From: a virus | Direction: 5' to 3' (one strand) | Length of the DNA stretch: 20,361 bases | Virus record (IMG/VR): IMGVR_UViG_3300034356_001575 | Span: 1 to 20,361 of that record | Shown here: one piece after another, positions 1,226 to 20,361 of the stretch | How positions within the stretch are numbered: the first letter of the stretch is position 1 | Layout of the letters: each line of letters starts with the position of its first letter | Program-made: the position numbers and the translations under genes | Notes under the pieces: model-generated | Told to the model about the DNA's origin: nothing | Seen by the model: only the letters and a program-made list of their open reading frames with translations | Database searches by the model: none

Positions 1226-3387
1226 TATACGGTCCTCGTCTGGAGTTCGGTGTTGCTGATGCGGCGCGGGAGGTAGGTGATCTGGCGGATGTGGCCGTTG
1301 AACACATAGCTGGCTTGAATATTGCCAAAATCAAATGAGCTAGCAACTGCGGCAACAGTTGTTCCAACACTCGATACAGCACCTCCGTTTCTGACAGCGC
1401 CGTTTGAAACCCCGTTATAGGCAATTGCGAGTTTTTCGATTGCGCCAAGGCTCGATGTGCCGAGAGCGACGTTTGATGCATCAACATATGCCACCAACGA
1501 GTATGTAGTTGCAGGCTGATACAAAAGAAGCCCATTGCCACTTGCGCCCTTTAACGAAAACACAGCACTGCCAGCCGCTGCCCCTCCCGGTCCTATGGGG
1601 GAAGCGGAAGCAACAATCGTACTTTCGCTCGCACTATACGGGAACGCTTGCGTGCTTACGCTGGCAACATCAGCATTGCGGGTGGCTCCAGCAATGGCAT
1701 CACCATTCGGGATGTAGCTGGTCGCAAAGTCGCCCAGTTCAAGCTGCGCTCCGTAGGCGTACACAGTGCCAGCGGTCAGCGTCTGTCCACCAGCGTTGCC
1801 ATCTGCACCAATGTCGCAGCCAATAGTCGTGATAGACGCCACAGTTGCTCCAGTAACGGTAAACCGCTGCCACGATGAAGTCAGTGTGCAGAGCGTGTTG
1901 GCGCGATTTCCACCGCCGTCACTAAAGCGAAGATACACACTGCTAGTGGTCCCAGCCTTTAGCCAAACGCTGAAGGTGTACGTACCATTGGCAGTAGTTG
2001 AGAGAGTATGACGCCAGACACTATACGTCCCTGCTCCCGTCACTGCCGTGTTGAAGGTAATCAAAGAAGCAGATGTCGAAAGGCCATCCGGTCCCGTAGC
2101 GTTGTCGATAGTGATTGTGTTCGCTGTGCCTGAAGCCAAATTACCCCAATAGCTGCTAGTTGTTTGCAGAGTGCGTGAGTAGCGGATACGGTTTACCCTC
2201 TGCTCCTCCACCAGCAGCCCCTTAGCCGCCAGCGTCACCGGATCGTAGTCCAGTCGCGGCCCGTAATACGCAGCGGCAGTCGGTGCGGCTCCGTAGTTCG
2301 GCACGTAGGTGTCGAGGGACGCGCTGTCGGAGAGTTGTGCGCCCCAGAGGTAGATGCCGCTTATTCCATCTGCAGCCCATGAAACTGATACACTGCTTGT
2401 CGTGTAAGAAGGCGATAAAATTTGGACAGCAAATCCTGTAGATGCGCTGCCTGTGCTGCTAAATGAAATGCGATACCAACCATTAGAAAGAGCTATAATG
2501 GTTGGATTGCTTGCGCCAATTCCAAAATCTAAAACGTTTCCAGCGCCCGCCAATTGAAATGAGGCATATGCCCCAGTTGTTGCGTAGTCCCAAATACCAA
2601 TTTTATCGTAGCCGCCTGCCTTTGCGTAAAGGGAATATTTTACAGGTGTAGAGGTAGGCAAAGACACGATACATTGAACGCGATGCGTCGAATTTGAAGT
2701 TTCAGGAACTAAAAAGTCAGCGGTTTGCAATTCATTTGGCGCAAGAATGGCATTTGATATTGACCCAGAGCCAAATGCTTTGATGTTACTTTTCCCCCAA
2801 GCCGCATTGCTGAAGTCTTCCGAGAACCCCAGCAAATTCTTCGGCGTAGTCGGGTTGTACATCGGGTACGCAGAGGTGTTCGCCTTCATGCCGCCGAGGT
2901 CGCTGCGGTAGAGGTGTGCGCCCCATGCCTCAACAGCGTCAGCAGATGTGACGATGCGGATGCCTGCCGAAATAGTTCCAGCCGCAGGCGTCTGCGTCAC
3001 AGTGTATAAAGCCCAGTCAGAGGTAATCGTCACCGTTGTATAGGTGCCGCTGTCAGCCGCTATCTGGATGTTGCCCGTTCCGGTCTTACGCTTGAGCCAA
3101 ATGCCAAAGGTATATGAGACGCCGAGAGACGTATAAGACTGAAGCGTTGTGCCGTTCGCACCAGAGGCCGTAAGCGTGTCAGCGGTCGTGGTTCCATTAG
3201 GCGCAGCAACAGCATTAGCAGACGGCGTGGTGGAGGTCTTCGTCCAACTCGCGCTATCAAACTGCTCACTCGCCAGCAGGAGGTTATGCGGTGCCCACTT
3301 GATCAGTCCATCGCTGTCCGTAAGCGTTGCATTCGACGTGCGCGAGAACGTGATGAACTCTGTTGCGTTGCCAGTGATAGTAGCCAT
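1225..3387 (-). CDS. Modular phage head-spike / tail fibre protein, 720 aa
   Basis: Large beta-rich, S/T/A/G-rich surface protein, likely an exposed fibre or spike that contacts host glycans. Three tandem carbohydrate-binding-like modules are visible. Each opens with an NLL..SE.F...W or related motif (about residues 35-48, 184-198, 399-414), has a central aromatic Y-x-F/L-x-x-W/A-x-K strand (92-99, 251-256, 470-477) and ends with WGAHLY, WGAQL or YGAQLE (155, 348, 545). A final ~145 residues (575-720) look like a LamG/concanavalin-type domain. The layout resembles proteins annotated as phage head spike fibre domain proteins. The gene starts one base after the stop of the 76-aa gene. The part encoding the second module (about 2385-2815) is clearly more AT-rich than the rest, suggesting module exchange. 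No catalytic depolymerase motif is seen. Confidence 0.75.
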   Translation of the reverse strand: MATITGNATEFITFSRTSNATLTDSDGLIKWAPHNLLLASEQFDSASWTKTSTTPSANAVAAPNGTTTADTLTASGANGTTLQSYTSLGVSYTFGIWLKRKTGTGNIQIAADSGTYTTVTITSDWALYTVTQTPAAGTISAGIRIVTSADAVEAWGAHLYRSDLGGMKANTSAYPMYNPTTPKNLLGFSEDFSNAAWGKSNIKAFGSGSISNAILAPNELQTADFLVPETSNSTHRVQCIVSLPTSTPVKYSLYAKAGGYDKIGIWDYATTGAYASFQLAGAGNVLDFGIGASNPTIIALSNGWYRISFSSTGSASTGFAVQILSPSYTTSSVSVSWAADGISGIYLWGAQLSDSASLDTYVPNYGAAPTAAAYYGPRLDYDPVTLAAKGLLVEEQRVNRIRYSRTLQTTSSYWGNLASGTANTITIDNATGPDGLSTSASLITFNTAVTGAGTYSVWRHTLSTTANGTYTFSVWLKAGTTSSVYLRFSDGGGNRANTLCTLTSSWQRFTVTGATVASITTIGCDIGADGNAGGQTLTAGTVYAYGAQLELGDFATSYIPNGDAIAGATRNADVASVSTQAFPYSASESTIVASASPIGPGGAAAGSAVFSLKGASGNGLLLYQPATTYSLVAYVDASNVALGTSSLGAIEKLAIAYNGVSNGAVRNGGAVSSVGTTVAAVASSFDFGNIQASYVFNGHIRQITYLPRRISNTELQTRTV

Positions 3388-3388
3388 A

Positions 3389-3619
3389 TCAGTATTTCAC
3401 CGCGTAAGAGTTGTCTGTCATGTCAATGGCGAAGCCGACTTGATCGTTGTAAATCAGGCTTTCAGCACCGTTGTTCACGTTGATTGCATACGTGTCCGAC
3501 AAGAAGTCGATAGCAAACGCATTGGGGTCAGCCGAAATCAACAGGCTCGCCGGATAAACGGGCGAGACAGAACTGCCCCCTGAAAGAAGGGCGACCATCA
3601 GGGGGAAGTTGTTGAACAT
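3389..3619 (-). CDS. Small late protein with internal duplication, 76 aa
   Basis: Family not recognised. The ATG shares a base with the TGA of the preceding gene (TGATG), and the stop is one base from the fibre start, so it is embedded in the late operon. A 12-residue unit occurs twice: FAIDFLSDTYAI (35-46) and FAIDMTDNSYAV (63-74), each with FAID and YA conserved. The N-terminus is hydrophobic (FPLMVALLSGG), but it is too short and proline-broken for a clear membrane helix. A fibre-attachment or small virion protein is a reasonable guess from position only. Confidence 0.7.
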   Translation of the reverse strand: MFNNFPLMVALLSGGSSVSPVYPASLLISADPNAFAIDFLSDTYAINVNNGAESLIYNDQVGFAIDMTDNSYAVKY

Positions 3620-7608: not shown

Positions 7609-8011
7609 CAATTTCGCGCTCAAAAACAAACCGCTGCGGACCACCGTTCGGACCTGTCTGCTCCTGAACAACCTTTTCGGTGTACTTCTCACGGAAACGA
7701 GCCTGCATGGATTTGGCCCATACGGACGCTTGGAACTTGTCAGCGAATAACGCCGTCTGCCCGATGGTTTCCCACCAATCCTGTTCCAGTTCCTTTGCGC
7801 GCGTGAGTGCTGTCCGAAATTCAGGAAATTCATCAGCCCAACGCAGCATCGTCGTGCGCGGTACATCTATGGCCGCTGAGATTTGCTCTGGTGATTTGCC
7901 TTCAGCCCCAAGAGCAACCACACGGTCACAGAATGCTGGGTCATATGTGGACGGTCTGCCGCGCGTGTTTGTCACTTCACCCGCGACTGCCTCATTGGCT
8001 TGGTCGCTCAT
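7586..8011 (-). CDS. terS: Terminase small subunit
   Basis: A 141-residue DNA-recognition subunit that selects phage DNA for packaging by the large subunit. The start at 8011 was chosen for the AGAGG site five bases upstream; an in-frame ATG at 8098 would run through the promoter region. Residues 18-60 form a homeodomain-like helix-turn-helix (GRPSTYDP, then GKSPEQISAAIDVPRTTMLRWADEF). A central helical oligomerisation part follows, and a C-terminal tail (ERE.VDHKN) overlaps the terL start. It is the first gene of the late leftward operon. Confidence 0.85.
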   Translation of the reverse strand: MSDQANEAVAGEVTNTRGRPSTYDPAFCDRVVALGAEGKSPEQISAAIDVPRTTMLRWADEFPEFRTALTRAKELEQDWWETIGQTALFADKFQASVWAKSMQARFREKYTEKVVQEQTGPNGGPQRFVFEREIVDHKNTD

Positions 8012-8147
8012 GCTGGCCTCTTTGCTTGTGATGGGGTTCCCGCGCAATATTATTGCTTTTTGCAGCGATGTTACATTTCGTACGGATTGTTGTTGCAATC
8101 GCTACGTTGTGGCCTCATATAGAAGTCACCAACAACGGAGAACGACA
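8012..8147. promoter_or_regulatory. Divergent promoter region between terS and the small plus-strand operon
   Basis: TTGCAA (8093-8098) reads the same on both strands. On the minus strand it is followed after 17 bases by TGTAAC (8075-8070), a possible late promoter for terS. On the plus strand a good -10, TATAGA, lies at 8118-8123, with TTGCAA 19 bases away. A perfect palindrome GCAATA-T-TATTGC (8044-8056) followed by five T on the plus strand sits inside the terS leader and could be an operator. The plus gene has a GGAG site at 8137-8140. Promoter calls are by eye. Confidence 0.45.
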
Positions 8148-8342
8148 ATGATCGGCGCAGATGAAATGACCATTCAGGACAAGTTCGGGAACGTGGTGTT
8201 TGTCCGTCGCGGCATTGACGCCCAGCGTCATATCAACAACATCGTTGCAGCCTATGCGGCAGCGGGGTTTGAGGTTCGCGGGCAGACCATTATGGCACCC
8301 AAGGCCGAGATTGAGGCCGCTGTCCGTGAGGTCGGCGTTTGA
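8148..8342 (+). CDS. Small protein, 64 aa, coupled to an HTH gene
   Basis: Family not recognised. The ATG at 8148 has a clear GGAG seven bases upstream and a TATAGA promoter element before it. The frame is open further upstream, but that part lies under terS and the divergent promoter, so the later start was chosen. The protein is mixed alpha/beta, with a central helix (DAQRHINNIVAAYAAAGFEV) and an acidic-hydrophobic C-terminus. Its stop overlaps the TTG start of the next HTH gene (TTGA), so the two are probably co-translated. Confidence 0.7.
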   Translation: MIGADEMTIQDKFGNVVFVRRGIDAQRHINNIVAAYAAAGFEVRGQTIMAPKAEIEAAVREVGV

Positions 8343-8521
8343 CCCCCGCTTCTCTTGAAGCCTGGATGGAGCGCCTTCACCTCAACAAGGTGGGGGCGGC
8401 TTCCGCATTGGGTATCGCCCGTTCAACGCTGGACCGTTACCTAGACGGGTCTGTTCGTATTCCTCAGTACATTGCTCTGGCATGTGCCGCAGTCGCCCAC
8501 GGTCTTCCGCCAATCAAGTAG
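8339..8521 (+). CDS. Cro/CI-like small HTH protein, 60 aa
   Basis: Residues 8-45 make one compact helix-turn-helix: MERLHLNKVGAASALGIAR, then STLDRYLDGSVRIPQYIALA. The architecture is that of minimal Cro-type DNA-binding proteins. The TTG at 8339 overlaps the upstream TGA by two bases, the same TTGA coupling seen at the HNH gene, and an ATG at 8366 would trim nine residues. Being encoded opposite terS, it may control the late promoter in the divergent region; this is inference. Its stop codon abuts the start of a long base-paired segment (8521-8593). Confidence 0.75.
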   Translation: MTPASLEAWMERLHLNKVGAASALGIARSTLDRYLDGSVRIPQYIALACAAVAHGLPPIK

Positions 8522-8800
8522 GGTTCCAGCCGCACGGCGCGATCTGCTCTGACGCTGAACCGGGAGGGGTGGCAGTGGCGTGGGCTGGAATTTCTGTGAA
8601 CTGGAGTCCGATGCGTCTAGGACGCGCCAAGTGGCACAGGCTCGGACAAACACCTGATGGTAGGTATCCCCTGCGCGATTCAGCCCCTAGGACGGGTGCA
8701 GTCGGGAGGACGTTGGGATTGAGGAAGCGCAGGGGAACTTAATCGGGTGCCAAGTTAGCCGTCTGGTGCAGCGGCCTTGGATTCTGCGGCATCACCAGAT
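8521..8800 (+). ncRNA. Candidate structured RNA (fills the gene-poor 8522-8908 gap)
   Basis: There is no convincing protein gene here, but many complementary segments on one strand. 8524-8531 pairs with 8583-8590 (TTCCAGCC/GGCTGGAA), extended by three G-U pairs outward and by CACG/CGTG (8533-8536 with 8579-8582) inward. 8613-8617 pairs with 8621-8625 (GCGTC/GACGC). 8606-8610 pairs with 8643-8647, while 8594-8598 with 8635-8639 would cross it as a possible pseudoknot. 8667-8676 pairs with 8727-8736, ten perfect pairs (TCCCCTGCGC/GCGCAGGGGA). 8762-8768 pairs with 8793-8799. The first helix begins at the stop codon of the HTH gene. Strand is inferred from the plus-strand operon. No known RNA family is recognised. 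8801-8908 holds nothing further that I can support. Confidence 0.4.
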
Positions 8801-8908
8801 AACCGCCGTCACCCAAACTGAATTTCAGGCAATTCTTCTCAACACGCCGCAACGGGTGCAGCGGTTACAGCCACGGGGCGAACCCTCTTGAGCGGCATAT
8901 GCAGTTCG

Positions 8909-9448
8909 TCATCGTGCAATATCGGGGTTAATTGTAACTTTTTTATGGCAGATTAACCAGAGCACTGTTGCAACTACCAGCGTCATCCACAGTTTGCCCA
9001 GAAGCTGCCCGCCCATGAACTCCAGCGAACCAAAAGCCAGCCACAAGAACGCCGCTGAGTCAGCCACAGCGCCCACCACGCCCGATGCCAACACGGCCAG
9101 CGGCAAGTGACGCTTTCGCAGCGGGGTATAAACCGCGAGGTCCAACAATTCAGCGATACCGAACGCCACTGCCGAAGCGACCACAAGCGCAGGGGGGGCA
9201 ACCAGGATTGACAGCACCACTCCCACTGCAATGGCCGCAAATGCCCACCGGATGCCCAGCAACTGCTGCACCGCATCACGAAGCACCAGCGCCGCACCAA
9301 TCATCAGAACACCTGACGGGGCAGACAAACCAAACCCTACAGGGATGAGGCACGGGCCGTTGGGAACGCAGAACGTCCCGACATTTCCGATAAGCCAGTT
9401 AGCCAACGGGATGGTTGCGAGATAGGCGAGGAAGATTGCAATTCTCAT
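8909..9448 (-). CDS. VUT-family transporter, probable 7-deazaguanine (queuosine precursor) importer
   Basis: A 179-residue integral membrane protein with about six hydrophobic segments. It carries the pattern seen in VUT/YhhQ-like proteins (DUF165): an early AYLATIPLANW, then PVGFGLSAPSGV, LRD, a Y-T-P-L-R-K-R loop and GA-V-ADSAAFLWLAFGSLEF. The family imports preQ0/preQ1 in bacteria. The ATG at 9448 overlaps the stop of the transglycosylase-like gene (ATGA), so the two are translationally coupled. A frame extension to 9484 exists but would run further into the upstream gene. Beside a DpdA-like gene the natural reading is supply of the 7-deazaguanine base for DNA modification; that link is inference from known phage gene sets. 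Confidence 0.75.
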   Translation of the reverse strand: MRIAIFLAYLATIPLANWLIGNVGTFCVPNGPCLIPVGFGLSAPSGVLMIGAALVLRDAVQQLLGIRWAFAAIAVGVVLSILVAPPALVVASAVAFGIAELLDLAVYTPLRKRHLPLAVLASGVVGAVADSAAFLWLAFGSLEFMGGQLLGKLWMTLVVATVLWLICHKKVTINPDIAR

Positions 9449-10125
9449 GCGATGAGTTCCATCTGTTCGGGTTGTGTTTTCCATTTAATTGGACACTGCA
9501 CTGCGTCGATGACACGGGCCATTGCTTCAGGGCATGAGTCCGTATCTTTGTAATTTCGCGCTACGTTCACGCTGTCCACGCTAGCGAACGGCCATCTTTT
9601 CCCTGCCACGGCCATGCCCCTGAGCATGTGTATCCACGGGATTGGCCCCCGGCGTCCAAGTTCGTTGAATGCCTCATCGCAACGGCGGCACCACGGCTCA
9701 GAACCAACTTGCCAATAGGCACCGGATGAACCGAAGCAGACCTTGGGAAACTCCTGCGCGAAGTCCAAAAGGGTTTCGAGCGGTTCCGCCATATGCCACA
9801 CAGGTGCGCCAAGTTCTTTCCGGTGCGGCCACTCCTTCACCAGCTGGGCGTTGTCTTGCACATCACCATCAATAACGTCAGGGATAACTGCCCAATGAGG
9901 ATGACCAAGGCGGCTTTCAAGCCAGCGATAGTATCTGGTCCAATCCACGGCCTTGCCCTTGGTGAACAGGCTGAACGCGCCGTTGTCCCACATCACGCTT
10001 TGGCCGATCCGCAGGCAAATATCCGCATCTGCGGGATTGGCGTAGGAAACGCAGAAGTTTTTGCCAGCCATGAGCCACAACTGGTCACGGGGGCTCAGCG
10101 GCGTGCCGTGATAGTGGATGGTCAC
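9445..10125 (-). CDS. TGT-like transglycosylase, DpdA-like (putative 7-deazaguanine insertion into DNA)
   Basis: At 226 aa it is much shorter than bacterial tRNA-guanine transglycosylase, but the motifs run in the same order. WDNGAFS (46-52) resembles DSGGFQ with its first catalytic Asp (D47). IPDVIDGD (81-88) and CFGSSGAY (130-137) match the substrate loop positions, and HMLRGM (166-171) the YLMGVG strand. SVDSVNVAR (182-190) resembles FDCVMPTR with the nucleophilic Asp (D184). Only one CxxC pair (146, 149) is seen, so the usual CxCx2C-His zinc site looks reduced. Phage DpdA proteins exchange guanine in DNA for preQ0 derivatives, blocking restriction. The GTG start overlaps the upstream stop (GTGA). 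The assignment is by motif reading, not alignment. Confidence 0.6.
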   Translation of the reverse strand: MTIHYHGTPLSPRDQLWLMAGKNFCVSYANPADADICLRIGQSVMWDNGAFSLFTKGKAVDWTRYYRWLESRLGHPHWAVIPDVIDGDVQDNAQLVKEWPHRKELGAPVWHMAEPLETLLDFAQEFPKVCFGSSGAYWQVGSEPWCRRCDEAFNELGRRGPIPWIHMLRGMAVAGKRWPFASVDSVNVARNYKDTDSCPEAMARVIDAVQCPIKWKTQPEQMELIA

Positions 10126-10574
10126 GCCGCCTGCTCCAACTGCGCTTTGGCTTGGTCAACCATTTCCAGCAACGCCTCTCGGAGGTCGCGCCATTTTGCC
10201 TTTTGCTTTCTGCTAGCACTTTGTGATAGCGCCAGTGCCGCCCTATTCTCCGCATCAATCACCGCACGGAATGCGGAGATTTGGCTGTCAGGGATGACCA
10301 CTGGCCGCATGTCGCCGTCAAACTCGACGCCTACCAAATGCCGAATGCCCTGTAGATCGTCTACGGAGGCCACTGGCAGGCATGCGAACACACGGCGGGG
10401 TAATATCGCTATCTCACGGTAAGCCCGTAGCTGCGCCTTTGCTGTGACACGGCGGGCCACTGCGGGGCGGCAGGCTATAACCTGGACCGGATGCCATGCC
10501 GGAAAGCCCATGTTCCCAATTTGGGAAACAACGTAGGGCTCTTTCCGAAAGTCAGTGCGCATAATTATCCACAT
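10122..10574 (-). CDS. NusG/RfaH-like antitermination factor (NGN domain)
   Basis: A 150-residue protein whose first ~110 residues follow the NusG N-terminal domain pattern. An initial WIIMR strand is followed by KE, a helix and GFPAWHPV (about 23-30). PRRVFACLPV stands where NusG has the PGYVFV strand, and VDDLQGIRHLVGVEF, PVVIPDSQISAF and a helix follow. The C-terminal KOW domain is absent; instead there is a basic, A/Q/K-rich helix (QSASRKQKAKW). NusG paralogues bind RNA polymerase and let it pass terminators, so this protein could extend early transcription into distal genes. The ATG directly follows the upstream TAA. A start at 10562 would also fit. Confidence 0.65.
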   Translation of the reverse strand: MWIIMRTDFRKEPYVVSQIGNMGFPAWHPVQVIACRPAVARRVTAKAQLRAYREIAILPRRVFACLPVASVDDLQGIRHLVGVEFDGDMRPVVIPDSQISAFRAVIDAENRAALALSQSASRKQKAKWRDLREALLEMVDQAKAQLEQAA

Positions 10575-12110: not shown

Positions 12111-12206
12111 TCAAATATTTCTGTTACAGATGCCCGCAAAGTACGCGAGGCCAATGGCGAAGAAAAAGGCGTAGGCAAGTATGAAGCCGAACGCCGCGCC
12201 GCTCAT
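12111..12206 (-). CDS. Tiny membrane peptide, 31 aa
   Basis: The ORF ATG..TGA encodes 31 residues that are almost entirely one hydrophobic helix (AAFGFILAYAFFFAIGLAYF) with a short polar tail (ICNRNI). Its ATG overlaps the stop of the DnaA-domain gene (ATGA), the same coupling used throughout the operon, which supports a real gene despite its size. Function unknown; a membrane-acting small phage peptide (host takeover or exclusion) is possible. Confidence 0.55.
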   Translation of the reverse strand: MSGAAFGFILAYAFFFAIGLAYFAGICNRNI

Positions 12207-12550
12207 GCTGCCATCCTTTCGTCAATCGTTTCGCCAAGTTCAGCAGCAATGGCCTTGATCTTCGGCCACACGCGCGACAGGTCACGGTCCAGCTTCCGAA
12301 CGCCGTGCATAATTGTGCAGTGGTCACGCTTGATAAAACGGCCAATCTCAGGGTAAGAGCGGGCCGTGAAATAGCGGGCGCACCAATAGAAGATATGCCG
12401 CGCTTCCATGATGTTTGCGGCGCGGTGTGCGCTCATGATGTCTAGTCGCCCAATCCGCGTTGTCTTTGTAACCGCTTGGAGTATCTGCTCCATAGAATGC
12501 CCGAACGCAGTGGCGTCTTTCAGCGTGAGAATTGCCGCCGTTGCCCTCAT
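12203..12550 (-). CDS. Stand-alone DnaA domain IV-like DNA-binding protein
   Basis: A 115-residue protein. Residues ~45-95 match the C-terminal DnaA-box-binding domain: EARHIFYWCARYFTARSYPEIG, then the signature-like RDHCTIMHGVRKLDRDL. The AAA+ ATPase part of DnaA is absent. It probably binds DnaA boxes and either occludes host DnaA or marks the phage origin; both are inference. The start at 12550 was chosen for an AGGAGG site eight bases upstream and the ATGA overlap with gcrA, rather than the in-frame ATG at 12652 inside gcrA. Confidence 0.8.
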   Translation of the reverse strand: MRATAAILTLKDATAFGHSMEQILQAVTKTTRIGRLDIMSAHRAANIMEARHIFYWCARYFTARSYPEIGRFIKRDHCTIMHGVRKLDRDLSRVWPKIKAIAAELGETIDERMAA

Positions 12551-13062
12551 GCTGCGACCCTCCTGTTGTAGACATGCCACGCAGAACGGACGGTCTTGCT
12601 GATGAGTGTGCGGCTGTAGGACGCCACGCTTTCCGCCTTGTGGTAGGGGCAATAAGAACTTCCATCCAGAGTGCCGTGATTGCAGAAGGCCACACCGCCC
12701 ACATAAGCCTCATCGTCTTTCACGGGCCACTTGCAGCCTGTGACGTCAATTATTGAAGCCAACTGCCCTTCGTCAGGAGCGGAAACGGAAGTCACGGGCA
12801 ACTTGGCAAGCACAAACCCGGCGCGGGCGGGCAGCGTCATCTTCCTCGCCTTGCGTGGTTCGTCTGTTTTGGATGGCTTGCGAATGCGGGGCTTTGCTTC
12901 CAGGATGCCGCGAGCAATCTTGACGCGGTGAAGCTTGCCGCAGATGGTGTTGCGGCTGACACCGAAGTGAGCGGCCATTTGGTATGTGGTGTAACCAGTG
13001 CGCCACATTGTTAGCATTTCCTCAATGCGGGCTTCGGTCCAATCAAAGGCTGGGGCATTCAT
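12547..13062 (-). CDS. gcrA-like: GcrA-family cell-cycle regulator
   Basis: A 171-residue protein with GcrA architecture. The N-terminal HTH (8-50) has WTEARIEEMLTMW, YTTYQMAAHFGVSRNTICGK and LHRVKI. A basic linker follows (54-76). The C-terminal region carries CKWPV (110-114) and FCNHG...YCPYH (126-141), the cysteine/histidine pattern of the family. Host GcrA binds sigma70 RNA polymerase and methylated GANTC promoters to control the cell cycle in alphaproteobacteria. A phage copy may redirect this, or activate phage promoters carrying GANTC. The TAATG overlap with rusA and ATGA overlap with the next gene place it mid-operon. Confidence 0.85.
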   Translation of the reverse strand: MNAPAFDWTEARIEEMLTMWRTGYTTYQMAAHFGVSRNTICGKLHRVKIARGILEAKPRIRKPSKTDEPRKARKMTLPARAGFVLAKLPVTSVSAPDEGQLASIIDVTGCKWPVKDDEAYVGGVAFCNHGTLDGSSYCPYHKAESVASYSRTLISKTVRSAWHVYNRRVAA

Positions 13063-19742: not shown

Positions 19743-20003
19743 CTAGCCCTTCGGGGGCAGTCCCAGCCGCTTCCTGCGCCATTCATCGCCCCTGCCCGCC
19801 CGTTCGGCCTTGCGCCATTCGGCTTCCTCTTGCGGGGTCATGCGCTTGGACAGGATAGCCAAAATCTGAGGCCAAGCCTTTGTTGCCAGTTCCCTGACAA
19901 CCTCCCCCCAGAATGCCGGGGTTCGCATCACCAAAAAAGAAGCGGCCCCCACACCAATGAGGACCGCCACGATAAGAGCAAATACTATTACGCCTTCCGA
20001 CAT
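19743..20003 (-). CDS. One-helix membrane protein of the lysis cassette, 86 aa
   Basis: An N-terminal transmembrane helix (VIVFALIVAVLIGVGAASFLV, about 5-25) is followed by a charged cytoplasmic or periplasmic region with RMTPQEEAEWRKAERAGRGDEWRRKR. The TAATG overlap with the holin gene makes them a pair. N-in, one-helix proteins here are often spanin-like or holin-modulating, but the charge pattern alone does not decide. The frame extends to 20174 through the holin gene; the later start is chosen for the overlap. Confidence 0.7.
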   Translation of the reverse strand: MSEGVIVFALIVAVLIGVGAASFLVMRTPAFWGEVVRELATKAWPQILAILSKRMTPQEEAEWRKAERAGRGDEWRRKRLGLPPKG

Positions 20004-20179
20004 TAGGCCGCAGCCTTGCCCTTCTGCCAGAACACCCACCAGGCGATGCCGCCCAGCGAGACAATGGCACCCGTGAGGGTAACGCCCATTTCGGCAGTAA
20101 TAAGGCCCTTGCTGACAAGCATGCCCGCAACCACTTGCATAATGATGCGGATAAACTGCTGGATTGTGTCCCAATTCAT
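20003..20179 (-). CDS. Holin, 58 aa
   Basis: Two hydrophobic segments (about 8-25 and 33-51) flank a short polar turn (SKGLITAEMG), with a basic C-terminus (WQKGKAAA), typical of small phage holins that form membrane holes releasing the endolysin. The ATG at 20179 has AGGAG seven bases upstream; the longer frame to 20227 overlaps the endolysin end. It lies directly after the endolysin and before the one-helix membrane protein. Confidence 0.75.
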   Translation of the reverse strand: MNWDTIQQFIRIIMQVVAGMLVSKGLITAEMGVTLTGAIVSLGGIAWWVFWQKGKAAA

Positions 20180-20189
20180 ATTCGTACTC

Positions 20190-20361
20190 CTAAGCTTCGT
20201 TTGTTGAGAGGGAGCCGCTGGCTGCAAGTTTCACGGGCTTGACATTGACAGGCTCGTTCACCCTCCAGGGGCAGCGGCGAATGCCCAAGAGGCGGTTCTT
20301 TGCAATGCGCTTAATCATCACGCGGTCAGACTGATTGCCGCCCAGAACGTGATAGGCGGAA
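20190..20361 (-). CDS. Endolysin, C-terminal part (partial, start outside window)
   Basis: The frame is open to the right edge and ends with TAG at 20190. The visible residues include SAYHVLGGNQSDRVMIKRIAKN, then RLLGIRRCPW, the typical end of TIGR02594-type (NlpC/P60-CHAP-like) phage lysozymes, where V-L-GGNQSD-V is highly conserved. A short tail (VNVKPVKLAASGS) follows. The catalytic Cys/His lie outside the window. With holin and membrane protein it forms a normal lysis cassette. Confidence 0.75.
   Translation of the reverse strand, partial: SAYHVLGGNQSDRVMIKRIAKNRLLGIRRCPWRVNEPVNVKPVKLAASGSLSTNEA

What the first reader, a model, noticed from the sequence alone, without database searches (positions are those of the whole stretch)
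8909..10125. Compact DpdA-like plus VUT transporter pair: possible 7-deazaguanine DNA modification system
A TGT-like protein is translationally coupled to a queuosine-precursor-type importer. Phages are known to use DpdA to place preQ0 derivatives in DNA and escape restriction. This window has no preQ0 synthesis genes (folE, queC, queD, queE), so the pair may be a minimal version that relies on host or imported base.
Basis: partly seen in the sequence, partly recalled or inferred. Interest (0 to 1): 0.75.

Follow-up and report, generated by a model that had tools for sequence, protein, structure and literature searches.

The report
Phage DNA-base swapper plus base importer
Two overlapping genes in a virus of alphaproteobacteria most likely encode an enzyme that swaps guanines in the viral DNA for a queuosine-precursor base, which should hide the DNA from bacterial cutting enzymes, and a membrane protein that imports this base so the virus need not make it.

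Summary
The 226-aa ORF (9445-10125, -) falls in the same viral family (PHROG 887) as the experimentally proven DpdA of phage CAjan. It is overlapped by a Vut_1/YhhQ-type transporter whose start, from homologues, is 9448 (179 aa, ATGA overlap), not 9484. Both genes are under purifying selection. The pair is not chance: in 79 of 80 related viral loci the two genes lie together; the exception has QueE and QueD at the transporter's position. None of 50 relatives carries QueC. The transporter is 58-64% identical to transporters inside alphaproteobacterial Dpd DNA-modification clusters but only distantly like the hosts' YhhQ. A confident AlphaFold model (pLDDT 93.5) is a TIM barrel with the invariant residues at strand ends; its named viral matches are queuine tRNA-ribosyltransferases. 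Best reading: an import-dependent 7-deazaguanine DNA-modification module of a temperate phage of Alphaproteobacteria. Hutinet et al. 2019 already proposed that DpdA-only phages use host or imported precursor and that some carry YhhQ, but saw no correlation. The near-fixed coupling, the swap with QueE/QueD and the Dpd-type transporter are the new parts. The chemistry (which base, DNA or tRNA) is untested.

The parts
9445..10125 (-). DpdA/TGT-like guanine transglycosylase, 226 aa, GTG start
   Evidence: PHROG 887 E 2.3e-45; same PHROG as proven CAjan DpdA; hhalign to CAjan DpdA prob 94%, E 1e-7; AF2 TIM barrel pLDDT 93.5; BFVD matches to queuine tRNA-ribosyltransferases, best named E 4.6e-9
8909..9448 (-). 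Vut_1/YhhQ-type putative 7-deazaguanine precursor transporter, 179 aa from the conserved ATG (191 aa if the ATG at 9484 is used)
   Evidence: Pfam Vut_1 E 1.1e-9; weak TIGR00697 queuosine precursor transporter, below cut-off; start inferred from homologues
9445..9448 (-). ATGA overlap of DpdA-like stop and transporter start (translational coupling inferred)
   Evidence: sequence; exact overlap in 47 of 80 relatives
9982..9987 (-). codons of D47-N48 (motif DNGAFS), counterpart of CAjan DSGAFSA; D47 invariant in the family
   Evidence: alignments A2, A5; hhalign
9571..9576 (-). codons of invariant D184-S185 at the end of a barrel strand, candidate nucleophile region
   Evidence: nucleophile role inferred from TGT, not shown
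10122..10574 (-). upstream 150-aa ORF of unknown function, overlapping the DpdA-like start by 4 nt (GTGA); probably same operon, role not shown
   Evidence: no Pfam family

Best explanation
A two-gene, import-dependent DNA-modification module of a temperate tailed phage of Alphaproteobacteria. The transporter brings preQ0 or a related 7-deazaguanine into the infected cell, adding to what the host makes for queuosine. The DpdA-like enzyme then exchanges chosen guanines in phage DNA for that base, which should block restriction enzymes that read N7 of guanine. Shown here: both families, their coupling, selection, the predicted fold, absence of synthesis genes in the records searched, and their replacement by QueE/QueD in rare relatives. 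Inferred: the transported and inserted base, DNA as substrate, and the anti-restriction benefit.
For: Same PHROG as CAjan DpdA and same PHROG as CAjan's preQ0 transporter; deleting dpdA in CAjan removes dPreQ0 and restriction resistance (PMC6884629). VUT within 4 kb on the same strand in 79/80 viral relatives and anywhere in 49/50 records, with QueC in 0/50. In L078 and the prophage-like locus L113, QueE and QueD above curated cut-offs lie downstream instead of VUT. Transporter 58-64% identical to those next to QueC in Dpd-type clusters, against 22-42% over 52-114 residues for host YhhQ, and the two separate in a tree (93/70). A different DpdA family (Pfam DpdA) in phage phiLM21 overlaps a 54% identical VUT. 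11 of 13 genomes carrying relatives encode strong QueC; 12 of 13 encode TGT. Invariant D47, H111, G132, H166, D184 sit at C-terminal ends of predicted barrel strands.
Against: No measurement of modified bases in any member of this subfamily. Phages with DpdA but no synthesis genes had none (Orion) or traces (7-11) in Hutinet 2019. Profile comparison with canonical host TGTs is not significant; PDB fold matches are generic TIM barrels at E 4e-3 or worse. D83 is not kept in CAjan DpdA. Most close relatives share one lineage, so 79/80 is not 80 independent events.
Confidence: 0.78

Rival explanations
1. The pair acts on tRNA: the phage imports queuosine precursor and its TGT-like enzyme modifies host or phage tRNA to tune translation.
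For: Superfamily and transporter family were first known from tRNA queuosine; PHROG 887 is annotated as queuine tRNA-ribosyltransferase.
Against: No match to tRNA-TGT families and a bare 226-aa barrel with no separate C-terminal domain; same family as CAjan DpdA, shown to act on DNA; transporter groups with Dpd DNA-modification clusters; most hosts already have a TGT.
Confidence: 0.1
2. The module inserts a base other than preQ0 (for example 7-carboxy-7-deazaguanine or preQ1); otherwise as in the best explanation, of which this is a sub-case.
For: The rare swap carries QueE and QueD but no QueC nearby, whose product would be 7-carboxy-7-deazaguanine; several 7-deazaguanines are known in phage DNA.
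Against: Most host genomes examined encode QueC, so precursor would be carried on to preQ0.
Confidence: 0.3
3. The two genes are unrelated neighbours: a TGT-like moron and a transporter for some vitamin, together by phage mosaicism.
For: Vut_1 is a broad family; in enterobacterial lambdoid relatives no VUT is near the TGT-like gene (0/80).
Against: 79/80 co-location in both gene orders with frequent overlaps; replacement by QueE/QueD; independent pairing with another DpdA family.
Confidence: 0.04

Closest known systems
Phage CAjan (Seuratvirus) dPreQ0 pathway: DpdA, FolE, QueD, QueE, QueC, preQ0 transporter
   Same: Transglycosylase and transporter in the same PHROGs (887, 4899)
   Different: CAjan makes preQ0 itself and its DpdA is 306 aa; here no synthesis genes and 226 aa
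DpdA-only phages, group 3 of Hutinet et al. 2019 (for example Salmonella 7-11, Mycobacterium Orion)
   Same: Transglycosylase without FolE/QueDEC; dependence on host or imported precursor already proposed there
   Different: That study saw no correlation of YhhQ with any group; here VUT is nearly fixed beside this subfamily
Bacterial Dpd cluster of Alphaproteobacteria (DpdB-DpdA-DpdB-QueC-VUT)
   Same: Transporter 58-64% identical; DpdA of the same superfamily
   Different: Phage lacks DpdB and QueC and has a much shorter transglycosylase
Sinorhizobium phage phiLM21 DpdA (Pfam PF23859) plus VUT
   Same: Two-gene overlapping pair with a 54% identical VUT
   Different: DpdA from another family
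Rhizobium phage RHph_N3_2 and Pseudanabaena phage Pam5 pairs
   Same: Same two genes, 47.6-52.6% (DpdA-like) and about 61% (VUT) identical
   Different: Annotated only as hypothetical protein or transglycosylase and as DUF165 or VUT family; no function stated for the pair in the records

Membership tests
Phage DpdA (7-deazaguanine DNA transglycosylase) | Sequence family shared with an experimentally proven DpdA | tested here: met
   PHROG 887 for window (2.3e-45) and CAjan (8e-96); hhalign 94%
Phage DpdA (7-deazaguanine DNA transglycosylase) | TGT-like TIM barrel with conserved active-site Asp and His | tested here: met
   Confident TIM barrel, viral TGT-annotated matches, invariant D47, H111, H166, D184; the PDB search itself does not single out TGT
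Phage DpdA (7-deazaguanine DNA transglycosylase) | Inserts a 7-deazaguanine into DNA | not testable with these tools
   needs LC-MS of DNA
Pfam PF23859 DpdA / NCBIfam NF041059 DpdA | Score above the curated cut-off | tested here: not met
   no match; CAjan DpdA itself also misses both cut-offs
Canonical tRNA TGT (PF01702) | Match to the TGT model | tested here: not met
   no match; hhalign with 7 host TGTs not significant
Vut_1 / queuosine precursor transporter | Pfam Vut_1 above cut-off | tested here: met
   39.2 bits against 27.2
Vut_1 / queuosine precursor transporter | NCBIfam equivalog TIGR00697 or PRK11212 above cut-off | tested here: not met
   39.3 against 50.95 and 22.2 against 252 bits; Dpd-cluster VUT also below
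Vut_1 / queuosine precursor transporter | Transports preQ0/preQ1 | not testable with these tools
   needs a transport assay
Complete preQ0/G+ phage pathway (Hutinet groups 1-2) | FolE, QueD, QueE, QueC in the phage | tested here: not met
   absent from the records searched apart from QueE/QueD in L078; records may be fragments
Bacterial Dpd system | DpdA of the bacterial type with DpdB | tested here: not met
   no PADLOC Dpd match for the two window proteins

The most novel reading that the evidence does not exclude
A widespread alphaproteobacterial phage lineage has fixed an import-only 7-deazaguanine DNA-modification strategy: a compact DpdA permanently coupled to a DNA-modification-specific transporter shared with bacterial Dpd islands, with partial synthesis (QueE-QueD) as the interchangeable alternative.
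Probability: 0.55. Interest if true: 0.6.

Novelty: new variant of a known kind. Interest (0 to 1): 0.48.

Why it matters
Whether phages with DpdA but no synthesis genes really modify their DNA, and where the base comes from, was left open in 2019. This lineage makes the question testable: a two-gene module small enough to move into a laboratory strain, with precursor supply set by host genotype or medium. It also suggests that one branch of the Vut_1 family serves DNA modification rather than tRNA queuosine salvage, which would change how these genes are annotated.

Tried and rejected
Direct hhalign of the family with canonical host TGTs: not significant. First AF2 model from 28 close relatives: pLDDT 73.7, no meaningful PDB match; a 67-sequence alignment fixed this. 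PDB sequence searches: nothing relevant. VUT search by single sequence in viral contigs reached few relatives, so a profile was used instead. Salmonella 7-11 gp107, guessed as its DpdA, gave no TGT/DpdA match and was not used. A paper search for newer DpdA subfamilies returned nothing usable. No tRNA or Rfam element in the window. Lambdoid relatives were checked as a counter-case: no VUT near (0/80).

Full report
What is there. The window is a 20,361-base viral record with a P22-like portal, a large terminase, an Erf-like annealing protein, a phage integrase and a GcrA homologue. GcrA is an alphaproteobacterial cell-cycle regulator (established knowledge), and relatives of the transglycosylase in bacterial genomes lie in Devosia, Ensifer, Agrobacterium, Microvirga, Rhizobium, Bradyrhizobium, Pararoseomonas and unnamed alphaproteobacteria, plus one distant Pantoea. 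A temperate phage of Alphaproteobacteria is therefore likely.

The pair. The 226-aa ORF matches PHROG 887 and nothing in Pfam or NCBIfam. CAjan DpdA, whose deletion abolishes dPreQ0 and restriction resistance (PMC6884629), is in the same PHROG. With the CAjan-like rows removed, the family still aligns to CAjan DpdA at 94% probability, pairing DNGAFS with DSGAFSA, and H111 and D184-S185 with their counterparts. Across 67 members G21, D47, G49, H111, G132, H166, P179, D184 and S185 are invariant. The second AlphaFold model (pLDDT 93.5, pTM 0.90) is a TIM barrel with D47, H111, G132, H166 and D184 at or next to the C-terminal ends of strands, where barrel active sites lie. Among viral predicted structures, nearly all named matches below E 1e-4 are queuine or queuosine tRNA-ribosyltransferases. 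Against the PDB only generic TIM barrels appear, so the TGT assignment rests on the viral chain of homology, not on solved TGT structures.

The transporter. The second gene is Vut_1. Homologues begin at the ATG that overlaps the DpdA-like stop as ATGA, giving 179 aa. Both genes are under purifying selection.

Is the pairing meaningful? In 79 of 80 viral relatives a VUT lies within 4 kb on the same strand, 58 downstream and 21 upstream. At 75% identity these relatives form 19 clusters, of which all but the one made of L078 have the VUT. Over whole records, 49 of 50 have Vut_1, none has QueC and one has QueD; of 22 records including the window, one has QueE and none has FolE. The single exception, L078, carries QueE and QueD directly downstream of the DpdA-like gene, and so does the prophage-like locus L113. 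In the Pam5-like branch 14 of 41 have VUT and 5 have QueE or QueD, never both nearby. Transporter and synthesis genes thus behave as alternatives at one position. Caveats: relatives share ancestry and many records are fragments.

Which kind of transporter? In Devosia, Microvirga, Ensifer and a Rhizobiales genome, VUTs sit next to QueC; in the first three the cluster also holds DpdA and DGQHR/DpdB-type genes (Devosia checked gene by gene, Microvirga for DpdA, Ensifer by sequence look). The window transporter is 58-64% identical to these but only weakly like the YhhQ elsewhere in the same genomes, and a tree separates the YhhQ group from phage plus Dpd transporters (93/70; midpoint root, some long branches). 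This ties the phage transporter to DNA modification.

Supply. Of the 13 genomes holding relatives, 11 have strong QueC and 12 have TGT. Most likely hosts therefore make preQ0, and import would raise supply or serve hosts that lack synthesis, such as R. subbaraonis, which has no strong QueC match but does have a YhhQ.

Comparison. Hutinet et al. 2019 described DpdA-only phages, proposed host or imported precursor, and noted YhhQ homologues in some phages without correlation. A preQ0 transporter beside a full pathway is known in CAjan and EC151 (PMC8310023). The general idea is therefore known. The near-fixed two-gene form, the swap with QueE-QueD, and the link to Dpd-type transporters were not found in the papers held; a 2023 Nucleic Acids Research paper on DpdA subfamilies (own knowledge, not held) could not be checked.

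Verdict. Observation confirmed with a corrected transporter start; interpretation supported by sequence evidence; chemistry untested.

Noticed in passing
L122 (2441-7269), L123 (3671-8581), L125, L300, L301: Alphaproteobacterial Dpd-type clusters in which DpdA is accompanied by DGQHR/DpdB genes (two copies in L122) and by QueC and often QueE or QueD; a VUT follows QueC in all but L301. L122 was checked for all parts, the others by DpdA or QueE hits or sequence look.
   Followed up: partly
window 12203-12652 (-): Phage ORF with a DnaA C-terminal DNA-binding domain (Bac_DnaA_C E 2.5e-17), overlapping the GcrA-like ORF 12547-13062; possibly a regulator or decoy at DnaA boxes.
   Followed up: no
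window 12547-13062 (-): GcrA cell-cycle regulator homologue (E 3.7e-17) in a phage.
   Followed up: no
L097 (phiLM21) 2207-3558: A different DpdA family (Pfam PF23859) overlaps a VUT of the same type; only 3 of 37 viral relatives of that DpdA have a VUT nearby.
   Followed up: partly
L114 (Pantoea ananatis) 7986-9704: DpdA-like domain at the N-terminus of a 572-aa ORF, followed by an ORF that looks like a DNA cytosine methyltransferase.
   Followed up: no
L113 7854-8673: DpdA-like gene split over two frames (possible frameshift or assembly error) upstream of intact QueE and QueD.
   Followed up: no
L107 6910-7989: PAPS-reductase-like protein directly upstream of and overlapping the DpdA-like gene.
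   Followed up: no
window 20003-20227 (-): Holin of the Pam3 gp28 family (PF23987).
   Followed up: no
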